NCBI GenBank assembly: GCA_001824455.1
Contig: MHXL01000077.1
Span: forward strand, 1 to 15,095
Direction of reading: 5' to 3'
From: Desulfuromonadaceae bacterium GWB2_53_15
GTDB lineage: Bacteria; Desulfobacterota; Desulfuromonadia; Geobacterales; Pseudopelobacteraceae
Length of the DNA stretch: 15,095 nt
Shown here: positions 5,193-14,677 of the stretch, piece by piece
How positions within the stretch are numbered: position 1 is the first letter of the stretch
How the letters are laid out: each line of letters starts with the position of its first letter
The notes under the pieces: model-generated
Databases searched by the model: none
What the model was told of the DNA's origin: nothing
The model's input: the letters and a program-made list of their open reading frames with translations, nothing else
Program-made: the position numbers and the translations under genes

Positions 5193-5633
5193 TCAAGCAC
5201 AGCGGAGGAGCTTCTTGCCGCTCTGAAACAGAACCTCCATCTTGTTCGGATTTATCAAAAGCTTTACAATGCCCAGCCCAAAGGCAGGGTGAGCCACCAG
5301 CTTTTTTACCCGGAAGGTACCATTCATATCATAGGGGAGCGCCATGTCCGGATCCATGGTCAAGCGCAGAGATTCCCATTCTTCACGCTCCACGGCTCCC
5401 GGGTCCACCTTGGGCTTACGGGCGGCCGGTGACGCCTTTTTTACAGAACCGCCGGCAGCAGGCGCCTTGGCCTTTTTGTCCGGATAATAATTGTGCGTCC
5501 CGCGGCAGGTATTGCATTCCACCCGGATCACCTGCTCGTCTTGCATGGCAACAATCGTATGATTCAAGATTGTCTTACAGCGTGTACAGCGCGACTCAAC
5601 AGTATCACCTGCTGATAATTTTCTGATCTTCAT
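5193..5633 (-). CDS. Zinc-ribbon protein with Tudor-like C-terminal motif
   Basis: A 146-residue protein of unknown role. Cys16/Cys19 (CTRC) and Cys40/Cys43 (CNTC) form a zinc ribbon. A basic, Ala/Pro-rich linker (52-78) follows, then a C-terminal segment (113-146) with the pattern VAHPAFGLGIVKLL...MEVLFQSGKKLL. This resembles the small beta-barrel at the end of PcrA/UvrD helicases (HxxFGxGxV...VxFxxxGxKxL), which in PcrA contacts RNA polymerase. A link to transcription is therefore an inference from motif likeness only. The ATG at 5633 was chosen because the zinc-ribbon domain begins there and a purine-rich AAGGGG lies upstream; the open frame to 5759 runs through a terminator hairpin and is not expected to be coding. 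It is transcribed alone, convergent with the operon on its left. Confidence 0.75.
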   Translation of the reverse strand: MKIRKLSAGDTVESRCTRCKTILNHTIVAMQDEQVIRVECNTCRGTHNYYPDKKAKAPAAGGSVKKASPAARKPKVDPGAVEREEWESLRLTMDPDMALPYDMNGTFRVKKLVAHPAFGLGIVKLLINPNKMEVLFQSGKKLLRCA

Positions 5634-5678
5634 CCCTGTTTCCCCTTGCTCCTGCTGGTTAATTTCGTGGCAACCCAA

Positions 5679-5722: not shown

Positions 5723-5748
5723 AAAACCCCGAACAGGTTCGGAGTTTT
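5723..5748 (-). terminator. Leader terminator upstream of the zinc-ribbon gene
   Basis: Read on the minus strand, an 11-position stem with one mismatch and a 4-nt loop (CCGAAC/GTTCGG core) is followed by a run of seven T then ATTGGG. It faces the zinc-ribbon gene and lies about 40 nt after the predicted start of transcription, so it could act as an attenuator or end a separate short RNA. Confidence 0.7.
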
Positions 5749-5824: not shown

Positions 5825-6026
5825 ATGTAACTCTGGGGAATGAAGGAATAGCATTGGCCTCAAAGGCCGGCAAGACACCGACAGCCTGTACTGAATTCTT
5901 TGATCATAACCGCCTTAATTATAAAAACTGATTGCCTACCGGTGATTGCCATGGTATCAGGTGCAGTTTACATTTCATTTCCATCCGCAAACTCCGGATG
6001 AGAAACTATCATTCAGGGGCCTTATA
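5825..6026. other. Gene-free stretch before the first ABC-F gene
   Basis: Together with 5634-5824 this makes a 393-nt gap between divergent genes. In this right half I see no RNA gene and no convincing promoter: TTGATC (5900) and TATAAA (5920) are only 14 nt apart. The open frame from 5946 has no family sequence before residue 28 and is taken as untranslated leader. Confidence 0.5.
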
Positions 6027-7646
6027 ATGATTCACCTTTCCAATATCACCAAACAACACGGTTCGCAAGTACTCTTCAAGGAAGCCAGTTTCCAGGTCCT
6101 GCCCGGTTCACGGACCGGCCTGGTCGGCCCCAACGGAGCCGGCAAGACCAGCATCTTCCGCATCATCACCGGAGAGGAGGAGGTGGACAGCGGCGAGATC
6201 ACCTGCGCCAAGAAAACCACCATCGGCTACTTCTCCCAGGATGTGGGCGACATGAGCGGCCGGTCGGCGCTGGAGGAGGTTATGGCCGGTTCGGCTGAGA
6301 CGGTGCGTCTGTCCGCAGAGCTTAAACTGATGGAAGCTGCCATGTGCGAGCCCATGGAAGACGACGAGATGGCCGCCCTGCTGGAACGATACGGCACTGC
6401 CCAGGAGGATTTCGAGCATCGCGGCGGGTACGATCTGGACACCCGCGCCCAAACCGTGCTGACCGGCCTCGGTATCGGACCGGACCGCTTTCATCACCCG
6501 GTGGAAACCTTCAGCGGCGGTTGGAAGATGCGTATCGCGCTGGCCAAGATACTGACCCTCAAGCCGGACGTGCTCCTGCTGGACGAGCCAACCAACCACC
6601 TGGACGTGGAGTCGATCATCTGGCTGGAGGAGTGGCTGGCCAATGAGTTTGACGGTGCTTTGCTTATGACCAGCCACGACCGCGATTTCATGAATCGCAT
6701 CGTGACCCGCATCATCGAGGTGGCCAACAAGACTGTGACCACCTATGGCGGCAACTATGATTTCTATGAGCGTGAGCGCGACATCCGCCTTGAGCAGCTC
6801 CTTTCCAGCCACAAGCGACAACAGGACATGCTGGCCAAGGAGGAGGAGTTCATCGCCCGCTTTGCGGCCCGCGCCTCGCATGCGGCCCAGGTGCAATCAA
6901 GAGTCAAGAAGCTGGAGAAGATCGACCGGATCGAGATCCCTCCCGAGGAGCGCACGGTGCGCTTCGAGTTCAGCGAGCCGCCCCGCAGCGGCGACGACGT
7001 AGTTGTCATGAAGGATCTGGGCAAGTCCTGGCATACCCCTGACGGTCAGCTAAAATCTGTCTTCAGCGGCGTTTCCGGCATCATCCGGCGCCAAAACAAG
7101 ATCGCCGTGGTAGGTGTCAACGGTGCCGGCAAATCGACCTTTCTCAAGGTATTGGCCGGACAGACGCAAGCCAGCAGCGGCAGCGTCAGTCTGGGGGCCA
7201 ACGTTGAGCTGGGCTACTTCAGCCAGCATGCCATGGAGGTCCTTGAGCCACGCAAAACCGTGTTCGAGACCGTGCAGGATGCCATGCCCCTGGCCAACAT
7301 CGGGGTCATCCGCAACCTGCTGGGTTCCTTCCTCTTTCAGGGGGATGCGGTTGACAAACGCATTGAAAACCTGTCCGGCGGCGAGAAGAGCCGGGTTGTC
7401 CTGGCTACGCTTTTGGCGCGGCCAGTCAATTTCCTGGTGCTGGACGAACCGACCAACCACCTGGACATCCGCTCACGGGAGGTCCTGCTGGAAACTCTGA
7501 GGAAATTCAGTGGCACGGTGGTACTGGTCAGCCACGACCGCCACTTCCTGCGCCTGCTGGTGGATCGGGTTTTCGAGATCGATCATGGGGAGATGCGGAC
7601 CTACGAGGGTGACTACGAGTACTACCTGCACAAGGTCCATGGTTAA
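6027..7646 (+). CDS. ABC-F family ATPase with two intact sites
   Basis: A 539-residue soluble protein with two ABC ATPase domains in tandem and no membrane segment, the ABC-F plan. ABC-F proteins bind the ribosome E site and affect translation or antibiotic resistance. Domain 1: Walker A GPNGAGKT (34-41), Q-loop Gln71, signature FSGGW (162-166), Walker B with Asp186/Glu187, His217. The linker (about 245-310) is charged and helical, as in the P-site tRNA interaction motif, with ARFAARASHAAQVQSRVKKL. Domain 2: GVNGAGKS (363-370), Gln400, LSGGEK (449-454), Asp473/Glu474, His503. All catalytic elements are canonical. The ATG at 6027 is preceded by AGGGG at 8 nt and starts directly with family sequence; an in-frame extension to 5946 is not supported. 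The exact subfamily (EttA, Uup, YheS or other) was not resolved. Confidence 0.93.
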   Translation: MIHLSNITKQHGSQVLFKEASFQVLPGSRTGLVGPNGAGKTSIFRIITGEEEVDSGEITCAKKTTIGYFSQDVGDMSGRSALEEVMAGSAETVRLSAELKLMEAAMCEPMEDDEMAALLERYGTAQEDFEHRGGYDLDTRAQTVLTGLGIGPDRFHHPVETFSGGWKMRIALAKILTLKPDVLLLDEPTNHLDVESIIWLEEWLANEFDGALLMTSHDRDFMNRIVTRIIEVANKTVTTYGGNYDFYERERDIRLEQLLSSHKRQQDMLAKEEEFIARFAARASHAAQVQSRVKKLEKIDRIEIPPEERTVRFEFSEPPRSGDDVVVMKDLGKSWHTPDGQLKSVFSGVSGIIRRQNKIAVVGVNGAGKSTFLKVLAGQTQASSGSVSLGANVELGYFSQHAMEVLEPRKTVFETVQDAMPLANIGVIRNLLGSFLFQGDAVDKRIENLSGGEKSRVVLATLLARPVNFLVLDEPTNHLDIRSREVLLETLRKFSGTVVLVSHDRHFLRLLVDRVFEIDHGEMRTYEGDYEYYLHKVHG

Positions 7647-11040: not shown

Positions 11041-12678
11041 CTACAGACTCAGATCGGCATGGCCGTGGTACAGCTCGTCCCGCTCTCGCGACACGTCCGC
11101 ATCCTCCAGATATTCCTCAAAACCCATCACACGGTCGATAACGCCGCCGGGTGTGATTTCGATGATCCGGTTGGCAACGGTGGAGACAAACTCATGGTCG
11201 TGCGAGGCGAACAGGATCACCTCGGTGTAGGCTATCAGTCCGTCGTTCAGGGCGGTGATGGATTCCAGGTCCAGGTGGTTGGTCGGCTCGTCCAGGATCA
11301 GAACATTGGCGCCGGACAACATCATGCGGGACAGCATGCAGCGTACCCGCTCGCCGCCGGAAAGGACACTGGTCTTCTTCATGGCCTCATCGCCGGAGAA
11401 GAGCATCCTGCCCAGGAAGCCGCGGGCAAAGGTCTCGCCTTCCGTAGGGGGCGAGTACTGGCCCAACCATTCGATCAGTGTCAGGTCATTATCGAAATAG
11501 GTGCTGTTTTCCTTGGGGAAATAAGCGCTGGAGATGGTCACACCCCAGCGGAAGCTGCCGCTGTCCGGTTCCAATTCGCCGGCCAGGATCTGAAAGAGGG
11601 TCGTCCGGGCCAGGGTGTTGCCGCCCACAAAGGCGATCTTGTCCCCTTTTCTCACAATTAATTCCAGGTTGTTCAGCACCTTGACACCTTCGATCTCCTT
11701 GGTGAGCCCCTGGATCTCCAGGATGATATCACCGCAGGGACGTTCCGGCTTGAACACAACGTGGGGATACTTGCGGGAAGAGGTCGGCATATCCTCCAGG
11801 GTCAGCTTGTCCAAAAGCTTTTTGCGCGAAGTGGCTTGCTTGGCCTTGGAGGCGTTGGAGCTGAAGCGCTGGATAAAGGCCTTCAATTCTTCGGCTTTTT
11901 CGGACACCTTGCGGTTCTCGTTCTGCTTCTGCTTCAGATTGAGCTGGGCGGCATGGTACCAGAAATCGTAGTTGCCCACGTAGATCTGGATCCGGCCGAA
12001 GTCGATGTCCGCCGTGTGGGTACAGACCTGGTTCAGGAAATGACGGTCATGGGAAACCACGATAACCGTATTGGAGAAACGGAACAGGAAATCCTCCAGC
12101 CAGGAGATGGATTTGAGGTCCAGATTGTTTGTCGGCTCATCCAGCAGCAGCACATCCGGGTTGCCGAACAGCGCCTGGGCCAGCAGCACGCGCACCTTGT
12201 CGCCCGCCTCCAGTTCCTTCATCTTCTTGCTGCGCAGCTCCTCGGGGATGCCCAGGCCGTTCAGCAGCACAGCGGCCTCCGACTCCGCCTCATAGCCGTT
12301 CATCTCGGCGAACTCGCCCTCCAGCTCTGCCGAGCGGACGCCGTCTGCTTCGCTGAACTCCGCCTTGGAGTAGATTGCCTCGCGCTCGATCATGACATCA
12401 TACAGTATCTTGTGACCCATGATGACGGTGTTGAATACTGTTTCCTCGTCAAAGGCGAATTGGTCCTGGCGCAGGACCGCAATCCGCTCCCGGGAGCCGA
12501 TGGTGATCTCGCCCTTATCTGCATCGATGTCGCCTGCAAGGATCTTGAGGAAGGTGGATTTGCCGGCGCCGTTGGCGCCGATCAGGCCGTAGCAATTGCC
12601 CGGGGTAAATTTGATATTGACGTCCTTGAACAGGACCCGTTTGCCATAGGATAGTGTAACGTTCGATGCGGCTATCAT
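11041..12678 (-). CDS. ybiT: YbiT-type ABC-F ATPase with one degenerate ATP site
   Basis: A 545-residue ABC-F protein, close in order and wording to E. coli YbiT (LRQDQFAF, TVIMGH, DPTNNLD-type Walker B, RFSxNASKxxQATSR linker, NDLTxxEW). Such proteins act on the ribosome. Domain 1: Walker A GANGAGKS (34-41), Gln71/Gln73, Asp180/Glu181, His210, but the signature is LEAGDK (156-161) instead of LSGGE. Domain 2: signature LSGGER (439-444) and Walker B Asp463/Glu464 and His493 are normal, but Walker A is GGNTLART (352-359), with Arg358 for the invariant Lys, and the Q-loop reads YFPK (386-389). All odd parts fall in the same composite site. The ATG at 12678 has AAAGGAG 9 nt upstream. It has its own promoter and leader terminator, shared in design with the Gre-domain gene at 14047. 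Confidence 0.93.
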   Translation of the reverse strand: MIAASNVTLSYGKRVLFKDVNIKFTPGNCYGLIGANGAGKSTFLKILAGDIDADKGEITIGSRERIAVLRQDQFAFDEETVFNTVIMGHKILYDVMIEREAIYSKAEFSEADGVRSAELEGEFAEMNGYEAESEAAVLLNGLGIPEELRSKKMKELEAGDKVRVLLAQALFGNPDVLLLDEPTNNLDLKSISWLEDFLFRFSNTVIVVSHDRHFLNQVCTHTADIDFGRIQIYVGNYDFWYHAAQLNLKQKQNENRKVSEKAEELKAFIQRFSSNASKAKQATSRKKLLDKLTLEDMPTSSRKYPHVVFKPERPCGDIILEIQGLTKEIEGVKVLNNLELIVRKGDKIAFVGGNTLARTTLFQILAGELEPDSGSFRWGVTISSAYFPKENSTYFDNDLTLIEWLGQYSPPTEGETFARGFLGRMLFSGDEAMKKTSVLSGGERVRCMLSRMMLSGANVLILDEPTNHLDLESITALNDGLIAYTEVILFASHDHEFVSTVANRIIEITPGGVIDRVMGFEEYLEDADVSRERDELYHGHADLSL

Positions 12679-12709
12679 GCTGTAAAACTCCTTTGCTCGA
12701 CAAATAAAA

Positions 12710-12734
12710 AACCACAGGGATGATCCCTGCGGTT
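12710..12734 (-). terminator. Promoter-proximal leader terminator of the YbiT-type gene
   Basis: In the minus-strand RNA, a 10-bp stem (AACCGCAGGG with CCCUGUGGUU, one G-U pair) closes a 5-nt AUCAU loop and runs into UUUUAUUUG. It begins 14 nt after the -10 element, so a transcript ending here is only about 40 nt long. The ribosome site AAAGGAG is downstream, so gene expression needs read-through. Confidence 0.8.
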
Positions 12735-12747
12735 CAGGTGATGAATA

Positions 12748-12777
12748 ACAATAGCATTATTGCCAACCAGACGGCAA
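12748..12777 (-). promoter_or_regulatory. Promoter of the YbiT-type gene
   Basis: Minus strand TTGCCG (12777-12772), 18-nt spacer ending TGC (12756-12754), TATTGT (12753-12748): an extended -10 promoter with predicted start near 12741. The same elements at the same spacing precede the Gre-domain gene (14604-14633). Confidence 0.6.
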
Positions 12778-12944
12778 TCATTTTCCCGAATCGGACGATT
12801 GTTTATGGTGATTTTCTCAGTGGTTATTCCATGCGGCCTAAATGCAGCACCTAAAATACATTTTTTGACCCACGTCATAATCCCCGGCACAACCATCTGC
12901 TATTCTGACTGCATTTCATAATCGTACCTTACAGGAGATAAATC

Positions 12945-14046: not shown

Positions 14047-14526
14047 TCAACAGACCTCCACGATCTCGAATTCGGATACTGCATCACCCACGCCTACCGC
14101 AACATAATCACCCACGACCTTGCCAATCAGCCCTTTGCCCAAAGGTGAAGCCGGCGTAATCACCACGACCTCGATATCCCCCTGCTGCACCTTGAGACCA
14201 CCCTCCAGAGGACCTACGAAAACCGTCCGGGTGGCGGCTTCGGCCGCAATGGTCACCAGGGCGCCCAGCCGGATCGGGCTGTCGCCTTCAAAGTGCCGCA
14301 GGGGCAGATTCTTGTAGGCCTCCAGGGCGACCTTGAGTTCCTGCGCGCGGTTGGCCTGCCCTTGGGCAACATAGGAGGCCTCCAGACTCAGTGTGTCATA
14401 CTTGTTGTCAGGGGCGTTTTCTTCGTGGGTGGCGGCTTCATGGGCTGTTTTGGCGGCTGTGAACAATACATCCACATCGCGGGAGAGTTGTTCGATGATC
14501 AGCTTTAGAATTCGTTCTTTGTTCAT
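14047..14526 (-). CDS. Divergent GreA/GreB-domain protein
   Basis: A 159-residue Gre-like protein, clearly different from GreB at 10438. Residues 1-75 are a helical hairpin; its tip has THEENAPDNKYDTLSLEASYVAQGQ, acidic (Glu35, Glu36, Asp40, Asp44) but without the GDxxENAEY motif of GreA/GreB. The C-terminal domain (85-159) has the FKBP-like Gre pattern: IRLGALVTI, RTVFVGPLEGGLKV, ITPASPLGKGLIGKVVGDYVAV. The SPLGKGLIGKxVGD segment is the Gre hallmark (SPIGKALLGKxxGD). It should bind the RNA polymerase secondary channel; whether it cleaves RNA or competes with GreB is open. The ATG at 14526 fits the domain start and AGGG lies 10 nt upstream; the frame to 14571 crosses the leader terminator tail. 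Related proteins are sometimes misnamed as 3-oxoacyl-ACP synthase. Confidence 0.85.
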   Translation of the reverse strand: MNKERILKLIIEQLSRDVDVLFTAAKTAHEAATHEENAPDNKYDTLSLEASYVAQGQANRAQELKVALEAYKNLPLRHFEGDSPIRLGALVTIAAEAATRTVFVGPLEGGLKVQQGDIEVVVITPASPLGKGLIGKVVGDYVAVGVGDAVSEFEIVEVC

Positions 14527-14565
14527 GGCAAATAGCCCTGCGACCTTCCTTTGCGCAAATAAAAA

Positions 14566-14590
14566 AACCACAGGGTTGATCCCCGTGGTT
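14566..14590 (-). terminator. Promoter-proximal leader terminator of the Gre-domain gene
   Basis: Minus-strand RNA: a 10-bp stem (AACCACGGGG with CCCUGUGGUU, one G-U pair) closes an AUCAA loop and is followed by UUUUUAUUUG. It starts 14 nt after the -10 element, exactly as in the YbiT-type leader; the two hairpins differ at stem positions 5 and 7 but both stay paired. Confidence 0.8.
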
Positions 14591-14603
14591 CAGGTGATGG
14601 AGA

Positions 14604-14633
14604 TGTATAGCACTTGCGACCATTCATCAGCAA
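14604..14633 (-). promoter_or_regulatory. Promoter of the Gre-domain gene
   Basis: Minus strand TTGCTG (14633-14628), 18-nt spacer ending TGC (14612-14610), TATACA (14609-14604): an extended -10 promoter, predicted start near 14597. Same layout as 12748-12777. Confidence 0.6.
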
Positions 14634-14677
14634 TGTAATTTAGCGACCCGGCATTCAACAGCTGCTTGGCTGGATGT

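What the first reader, a model, noticed from the sequence alone, without database searches (positions are those of the whole stretch)
14566..14633. Shared promoter-plus-terminator module in front of a Gre-domain gene and an ABC-F gene
Two non-adjacent, unrelated minus-strand genes (Gre-domain 14047-14526; YbiT-type ABC-F 11041-12678) have start regions with identical geometry: TTGCYG, 18-nt spacer ending TGC, a TATNNN -10, 14 nt, then a 25-nt hairpin (10-bp stem, 5-nt AUCA-type loop) and a U run with AUUUG. CATCACCTGAACC is conserved at the start of transcription. Stem changes at positions 5 and 7 keep pairing (A-U versus G-U), which supports a selected RNA structure. Predicted transcripts end at about 40 nt. 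In E. coli the greA leader has a promoter-proximal terminator yielding the short GraL RNAs; this looks like the same logic, extended to a ribosome-acting ABC-F ATPase. Common control of both genes by read-through (Gre activity, RNA polymerase pausing or translation stress) is an inference.
Basis: partly seen in the sequence, partly recalled or inferred. Interest (0 to 1): 0.8.

Follow-up and report, generated by a model that had tools for sequence, protein, structure and literature searches.

The report
Tiny start-site terminator shared by ribosome-care genes
In Geobacter-like bacteria a stop signal of about 37 bases sits right behind the start of transcription of a set of ribosome- and RNA-remodelling genes, which suggests one shared switch, perhaps tuned by cold, that decides whether these genes are read.

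Summary
In detail: two minus-strand modules (14633-14561 and 12777-12706) carry a TTGCYG -35, an 18-nt spacer ending TGC, a TATNNN -10 and, 13 nt on, an intrinsic terminator; 0 expected by chance in the window.

It is not a Gre/ABC-F pair. A covariance model finds it in 134 of 141 genomes of the order, up to 5 per genome. Of 97 distinct downstream places examined, 41 precede a YbiT-like ABC-F, 27 RhlE/DbpA-like helicases, 5 RsgA-like, 4 RluA-family, 2 the Gre-like gene. Of the 30 closest Gre-like homologues only 2 carry it, so that gene is a sporadic member.

Best reading: a minimal promoter-proximal attenuator shared by a ribosome-assembly gene set. Strand-specific G-U changes and variable arm spacing argue for RNA rather than a DNA operator. 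No competing helix is supported. Cold as the signal and cold-shock proteins as antiterminators are inferred, from the gene set, published cold induction of such genes, and csp genes upstream of YbiT in 11 of 80 loci, most of which lack a recognised module promoter. Rfam and my paper searches show no description. No expression data were available.

The parts
14604..14633 (-). Promoter of copy 1: TTGCTG (14633-14628), 18-nt spacer ending TGC, TATACA (14609-14604)
   Evidence: Sequence; same layout in most copies: in 130 copies with a recognised -10, a -35 of the form TTG[CTA] lies 17 or 18 nt from it in 118. Start of transcription near 14597 is inferred.
14560..14597 (-). Predicted terminated RNA of copy 1; stem-loop 14590-14566 and U run to 14561
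   Evidence: R1 match 14554-14639, 74.4 bits
14047..14526 (-). Gre-like gene (159 aa), read only if the terminator is passed
   Evidence: Pfam PF01272 28.8 bits, cut-off 26.9; below the NCBIfam GreA cut-offs
12748..12777 (-). Promoter of copy 2: TTGCCG (12777-12772), 18-nt spacer ending TGC, TATTGT (12753-12748)
   Evidence: Sequence
12705..12741 (-). Predicted terminated RNA of copy 2; stem-loop 12734-12710 and U run to 12706
   Evidence: R1 match 12698-12783, 79.6 bits
11041..12678 (-). YbiT-like ABC-F ATPase gene (545 aa)
   Evidence: Best NCBIfam model NF011646 (PRK15064, ABC-F family ATPase), 657.9 bits against a cut-off of 762, so best hit but below the equivalog cut-off. That PRK15064 is the YbiT model is recalled.

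Best explanation
The module is a minimal transcription attenuator. A sigma-70-like extended -10 promoter starts a transcript that almost at once forms an intrinsic terminator and ends at about +37, so many initiations give a short RNA and only read-through reaches the gene. In the order (Geobacterales by the named relatives) the same module precedes a set of ribosome-assembly and RNA-remodelling genes: YbiT-like ABC-F, RhlE- and DbpA-like helicases, RsgA-like GTPase, RluA-family pseudouridine synthase, sporadically the Gre-like factor, and some unknowns. The set is therefore probably controlled together by how often the terminator is passed. Likeliest trigger (inferred): cold or another state in which RNA folds too stably and ribosome assembly suffers, with cold-shock-domain RNA chaperones holding the nascent hairpin open. 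Shown from sequence: module, geometry, RNA-level pairing, gene set. Inferred: termination in vivo, regulation, signal and antiterminator. My split: attenuator leader 0.85; shared regulation of the set 0.7; cold or ribosome-assembly signal 0.45 (lowered from 0.5 on checking, because the csp-linked loci mostly lack a recognised module promoter); antitermination by cold-shock proteins 0.3.
For: Module found by model R1 in 134 of 141 genomes of the order at E<=0.01; reversed-pattern control 0 in all 57 genomes. First C of the stem lies 14-16 nt after the -10 in 115 of 130 copies with a recognised -10, so promoter and hairpin are coupled. In 67 non-redundant copies G-U 39 against A-C 4. No room for a second promoter (27 and 34 nt to the start codons). 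97 distinct places: 42 ABC-F (41 YbiT-like), 27 helicases, 5 RsgA-like, 4 RluA-family, 2 Gre-like, 8 Cys-rich, 5 lipoprotein-like, 2 + 2 others. Cold context: a csp gene 83-513 nt upstream of YbiT on the same strand in 11 of 80 loci, 0 of 48 Gre-like and DbpA loci; cspA, cspB, rhlE, dbpA cold-induced in Caulobacter (PMC8552747), rhlE and dbpA in Yersinia (PMC6277586); E. coli CSPs lower intrinsic termination at some sites (PMC9765468).
Against: No transcript, termination or expression data. Geobacterales csp genes do not show the module in the 14 distinct upstream regions printed out of 25 csp matches. The 11 csp-linked YbiT loci are outside the order as far as titles show, and none of those that passed the finder had a recognised -10; five (L080, L086, L098, L103, L110) had no CC...GG hairpin at all; a short lysine-rich ORF stands between csp and YbiT in several (by eye). 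Control loci are shorter than the ABC-F loci. 0 of 34 Geobacterales-type YbiT loci (L034-L067) have a csp gene nearby. CSPs are not uniform: in the passages read, CspB, CspF and CspH had no significant effect at the tested terminator. No competing helix or aptamer is supported. Colder conditions by themselves would favour termination.
Confidence: 0.6

Rival explanations
1. Fixed down-tuning: the terminator sets a low constant output from the promoter and is not regulated.
For: The leader is too short for an aptamer or upstream ORF, and no alternative helix is supported.
Against: Conserved spacing and arm sequence and a narrow, functionally coherent gene set are more than a constant tuning needs.
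Confidence: 0.25
2. GraL-like trans-acting RNA: the short terminated RNAs are the main product and regulate other mRNAs.
For: Several copies per genome with a conserved 5' end and U tail. In E. coli the short greA leader RNA has effects in trans (reported in PMC2965389, section 11).
Against: Loops and flanks vary between copies (listing); the constant feature is position in front of one gene set, which points to action in cis. Targets and Hfq were not tested.
Confidence: 0.12
3. DNA operator: the palindrome binds a repressor next to the start site.
For: Arms conserved in sequence, fixed distance to the promoter.
Against: G-U 39 against A-C 4 in 67 non-redundant copies (the finder counted G-U as a pair, but at the five positions it did not strictly require the ratio is 31 to 4). 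Arm spacing 11 to 24 nt. U run on one side only.
Confidence: 0.06
4. Gre-centred loop: Gre activity and polymerase pausing set read-through at both genes.
For: Geometry like the greA leader, where GreA represses its own gene through the leader (PMC6829880 passages). The window's Gre-like gene carries the module.
Against: Only 2 of the 30 closest Gre-like homologues carry it, and 29 of the 141 genomes' module-bearing gene families do not depend on a Gre gene being attached; most module copies precede other genes.
Confidence: 0.08
5. Spreading repeat: the module was copied in front of genes as a mobile unit without a common function.
For: Whole module including spacer is alike between different genes of a genome. 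Attenuators carried by mobile elements are known (PMC2965389, section 12).
Against: 1 to 5 copies per genome, nearly always in front of the same few families, and no transposase was seen among the downstream genes.
Confidence: 0.08

Closest known systems
greA leader / GraL of E. coli (PMC6829880, passages)
   Same: Intrinsic terminator close behind the start (hairpin region +19 to +48), short RNA plus read-through mRNA, in front of a Gre-family gene.
   Different: Stem here starts at about +7 to +8; the module is attached mainly to ABC-F and helicase genes; the Gre-like gene is a sporadic carrier; autoregulation untested.
greA- and rnk-leaders and attenuator 'regulons' (PMC2965389, sections 11 and 12)
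   Same: Terminators in front of genes, some groups shared by non-homologous genes.
   Different: Regulons there were surveyed in Enterobacteria and bacilli, and antiterminator structures are described for the greA/rnk leaders; none is supported here.
vmlR leader of Bacillus subtilis (PMC9226507, abstract)
   Same: Transcription attenuation of an ABC-F gene; induced also by ribosome assembly defects.
   Different: Depends on ribosome stalling on an upstream ORF; the 37-nt leader here has no room for one before the terminator.
Cold-shock proteins as antiterminators (PMC9765468, passages, citing Bae et al. 2000)
   Same: Proposed mode of read-through at intrinsic terminators, including nusA and rbfA expression.
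   Different: No dedicated short leader shared by a gene set is described in the passages read; action here is inferred.

Membership tests
Intrinsic-terminator attenuator leader | Promoter upstream, terminator between start of transcription and gene | tested here: met
   Sequence of both copies and stem position in 115 of 130 copies; start site itself inferred
Intrinsic-terminator attenuator leader | Stable hairpin plus U run | tested here: met
Intrinsic-terminator attenuator leader | Signal-dependent change of read-through | not testable with these tools
   Needs RNA data or reporters
Riboswitch or structure-switching attenuator | Competing antiterminator helix | tested here: inconclusive
   162 4-bp helices scanned in 67 copies; GUGA:UCAC type 10 of 67 against 5.1 in shuffles, z 2.7, not convincing after so many tests
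Ribosome-mediated attenuator (vmlR type) | Upstream ORF in the leader | tested here: not met
   The 37-38-nt RNAs of both window copies contain no ATG, GTG or TTG reading frame ahead of the terminator apart from codons inside the hairpin itself
greA leader / GraL family | Stable association with the greA/Gre gene | tested here: not met
   2 of the 30 closest Gre-like homologues
Any Rfam family | Match at the gathering score | tested here: not met
   0 matches in the window; weak matches are all at E 1.1 or more and far under their gathering scores
CSP-controlled cold-shock leader | CSP binding raises read-through; genes rise in the cold | not testable with these tools
   Context only

The most novel reading that the evidence does not exclude
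The 37-nt promoter-terminator module is the shared control element of a cold and ribosome-assembly regulon: RNA chaperones keep a nascent start-site hairpin open, so the polymerase senses, without metabolite, leader peptide or DNA-binding regulator, that RNA in the cell is folding too stably, and then reads through into helicases, ABC-F factors, an assembly GTPase and an rRNA-modifying enzyme together.
Probability: 0.3. Interest if true: 0.75.

Novelty: new variant of a known kind. Interest (0 to 1): 0.57.

Why it matters
If true, one very small attenuator governs a set of ribosome factors in metal-reducing bacteria. How bacteria raise helicases, assembly GTPases, ABC-F factors and rRNA-modifying enzymes together when ribosome assembly falters is only partly understood; a 37-nt element in front of such genes makes this testable with simple reporters and small-RNA sequencing. 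It also nominates unknown proteins (the Cys-rich protein and the lipoprotein-like family) for a role in that response.

Tried and rejected
Gre-centred model: rejected as the common denominator. Alternative helices: I suspected GUGA:UCAC and CCUG:CAGG as an antiterminator; a scan of 162 helices in 67 copies did not support it. DNA operator: disfavoured. Rfam: nothing at the leaders, also with relaxed cut-offs. Module in front of Geobacterales csp genes: not seen in the 14 distinct upstream regions that my motif script printed, of 25 csp matches; the other matches were not read. Paper searches showed no description of this element in the titles and abstract starts listed; one search listed 15 of 269 papers with the letter strings, by title not about bacterial leaders; the library holds open-licence papers only, so this is weak evidence of novelty.

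Limits of the counts: A1/R1 was built from 52 leaders picked by me (26 of 30, 26 of 62), many before ABC-F, which favours ABC-F copies. The 60 stretches were picked by me from the capped list. One search had 101 places; 3 were fetched twice, leaving 98, and I dropped L207 (E 0.157) to reach 97. Family names rest on representatives and on blastp grouping; RhlE (567.8 of 743 bits), YbiT (657.9 of 762) and RluA-family (185.8 of 192.7) representatives are best hits under their NCBIfam cut-offs, while DbpA (715 of 524) and RsgA (TIGR00157, 177 of 100) are over. The finder missed 25 of 202 regions, 18 of them among the 80 ABC-F loci (at least L043, L072 and L084 show a hairpin by eye), and kept 144 unique of 177; 14 of the 144 had no recognised -10. 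Its CC and GG are required, so their invariance is by construction. (13 of 18 DbpA-like loci with the hairpin) and L253 were read by eye; two of the 13 (L294, L295) show no clear promoter.

Full report
What is there. On the minus strand two modules share one layout: TTGCYG, an 18-nt spacer ending TGC, a TATNNN -10, 13 nt, a 10-bp stem with a 5-nt loop, and a U run followed by AUUUG. The core pattern with up to 3 mismatches occurs twice in the window and in none of 200 shuffles. In the genome held (52% complete, 189 contigs) there are the two exact matches and one with 3 mismatches. The predicted 37-38-nt RNAs fold at -17.5 and -18.9 kcal/mol, better than all 200 shuffles each. The neighbour upstream of copy 1 is a divergent CoA-binding-domain gene; that of copy 2 is an ORF without Pfam match on the other strand.

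How far it reaches. A stem pattern is in 27 of 57 relatives, with 0 hits of the reversed pattern in all 57. Model R1 (52 copies) matches 134 of 141 genomes of the order at E<=0.01, up to 5 per genome, and 21 of 395 genomes of a phylum-wide draw at E<=0.001, 8 of the 21 being of the order. Of the 13 outside the order I could read the downstream gene in 5 (L220, L224, L225, L226, L231), all YbiT-like ABC-F. Titles (Oryzomonas japonica, Geobacter sp. OR-1, many Geobacteraceae MAGs) place the window in Geobacterales; that order name is my reading. A CC...GG terminator lies within 190 nt upstream of YbiT in 62 of 80 loci (L094 looks unrelated). Of the 7 genomes of the order without an R1 match, 5 have no close YbiT (best identity 32-35%), G135 has it in pieces, and G122 has it without leader behind what by eye is a sensor-kinase gene (same arrangement in L046).

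Which genes. Of 97 distinct places, 41 are YbiT-like ABC-F, 1 a second ABC-F (L156, 87% identical to the window gene at 6027-7646), 17 RhlE-like and 10 DbpA-like helicases, 8 a small Cys-rich protein, 5 a lipoprotein-like family, 5 RsgA-like, 4 RluA-family, 2 Gre-like, 2 an unknown pair (L189, L192), L175 (spermidine-synthase-like) and L172 (no clear gene). In the window's own genome the 4 matches with E<=0.01 precede YbiT, the Gre-like gene, the lipoprotein-like gene (L205) and an RluA-family gene (L206, where only model positions 46-86 match). DbpA-like genes, found in 18 of 43 genomes, show the hairpin in 13 of 18 loci by eye. The Gre-like gene, in 105 of 141 genomes, shows it in 2 of the 30 closest.

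RNA or DNA. In 67 non-redundant copies, pairs other than Watson-Crick are G-U 39 times, A-C 4 times, others 14 times. Arm spacing runs from 11 to 24 nt while the stem starts 14-16 nt behind the -10 in 115 of 130 copies. This favours an RNA hairpin. The arms vary little, which may mean a sequence-reading factor or shared descent. No competing helix is supported.

Mechanism. A terminator ending at about +37 releases the polymerase early unless hairpin closure is delayed. There is no space for an aptamer or leader peptide. The gene set is one of ribosome assembly and RNA remodelling. Published: cspA, cspB, rhlE, dbpA and rhlB rise in cold Caulobacter (PMC8552747, abstract and passages); csdA, rhlE and dbpA rise at 3 degrees in Yersinia pseudotuberculosis (PMC6277586, passages); in E. 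coli CspA, CspC and CspE lower termination at an internal terminator of metY-rpsO and CspD does so at others, while CspB, CspF and CspH had no significant effect on the one tested (PMC9765468, passages). A csp gene stands 83-513 nt upstream of YbiT on the same strand in 11 of 80 loci, against 0 of 48 Gre-like and DbpA loci (shorter stretches) and 0 of 34 loci L034-L067; Rfam's cspA element is matched at the gathering score in L073, L103, L105, L106, L107, L108 and L110. These csp-linked loci are, however, those where the promoter half of the module is not recognised. Among 7 Geobacterales genomes, a csp gene lies within 15 kb of DbpA and the Gre-like gene in G008 and G020, and about 10 kb from the YbiT module in G004, and not in the other 4 as far as the coordinates show. 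So cold and cold-shock proteins are the likeliest inference, not a result.

Comparison. It works like the greA leader of E. coli (terminator hairpin +19 to +48; autoregulation needs the leader sequence; PMC6829880, passages), but it is not that leader, since the Gre association is sporadic. Attenuator sets before unrelated genes are known from Enterobacteria and bacilli (PMC2965389, abstract, sections 11 and 12). An ABC-F attenuator is known in vmlR (PMC9226507, abstract and outline), with an upstream ORF that is absent here. I rate this a new variant of a known kind.

Verdict. Observation confirmed. Interpretation partly supported: right about the leader, wrong about Gre as the link.

Noticed in passing
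window 5723-5748 (-), before the gene at 5193-5642 (-): A different strong hairpin with U run precedes the Cys-rich protein gene of the window; 8 homologues elsewhere (51-61% identical) carry the R1 module instead.
   Followed up: partly
window about 5929-6026 (+): The second ABC-F gene has a TTGCCT ... TGGTATC promoter-like stretch but no terminator here, while its orthologue in L156 has the full module.
   Followed up: partly
L073, L080, L086, L098, L103, L105, L106, L107, L108, L110, L112: A cold-shock-domain gene lies upstream of the YbiT ABC-F on the same strand; in L073, L080 and L086 the csp leader itself shows a hairpin with U run.
   Followed up: partly
L301, L302, L303, L306, L308, L311, L322: Geobacterales csp genes share a conserved leader of about 130 nt (AGTTTCGGAAGTTTTTGCAGAAC ... 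CTCCGGAAACT) that looks like a structured RNA; only L307 of 20 loci searched matched Rfam cspA.
   Followed up: no
L144, L149, L177, L178, L182: A lipoprotein-like family of about 370 aa follows the module; L144 and L178 have no Pfam match.
   Followed up: partly
leaders of DbpA-, RhlE- and RsgA-like genes, e.g. L282, L155, L160: A stretch like GGGCGCAGAATGAGAG follows the U run in many of these leaders, up to the ribosome-binding region.
   Followed up: no
L242 (G122) and L046: YbiT gene without the leader, about 50 nt behind what looks like a sensor-kinase gene: loss of the module or an assembly artefact.
   Followed up: no
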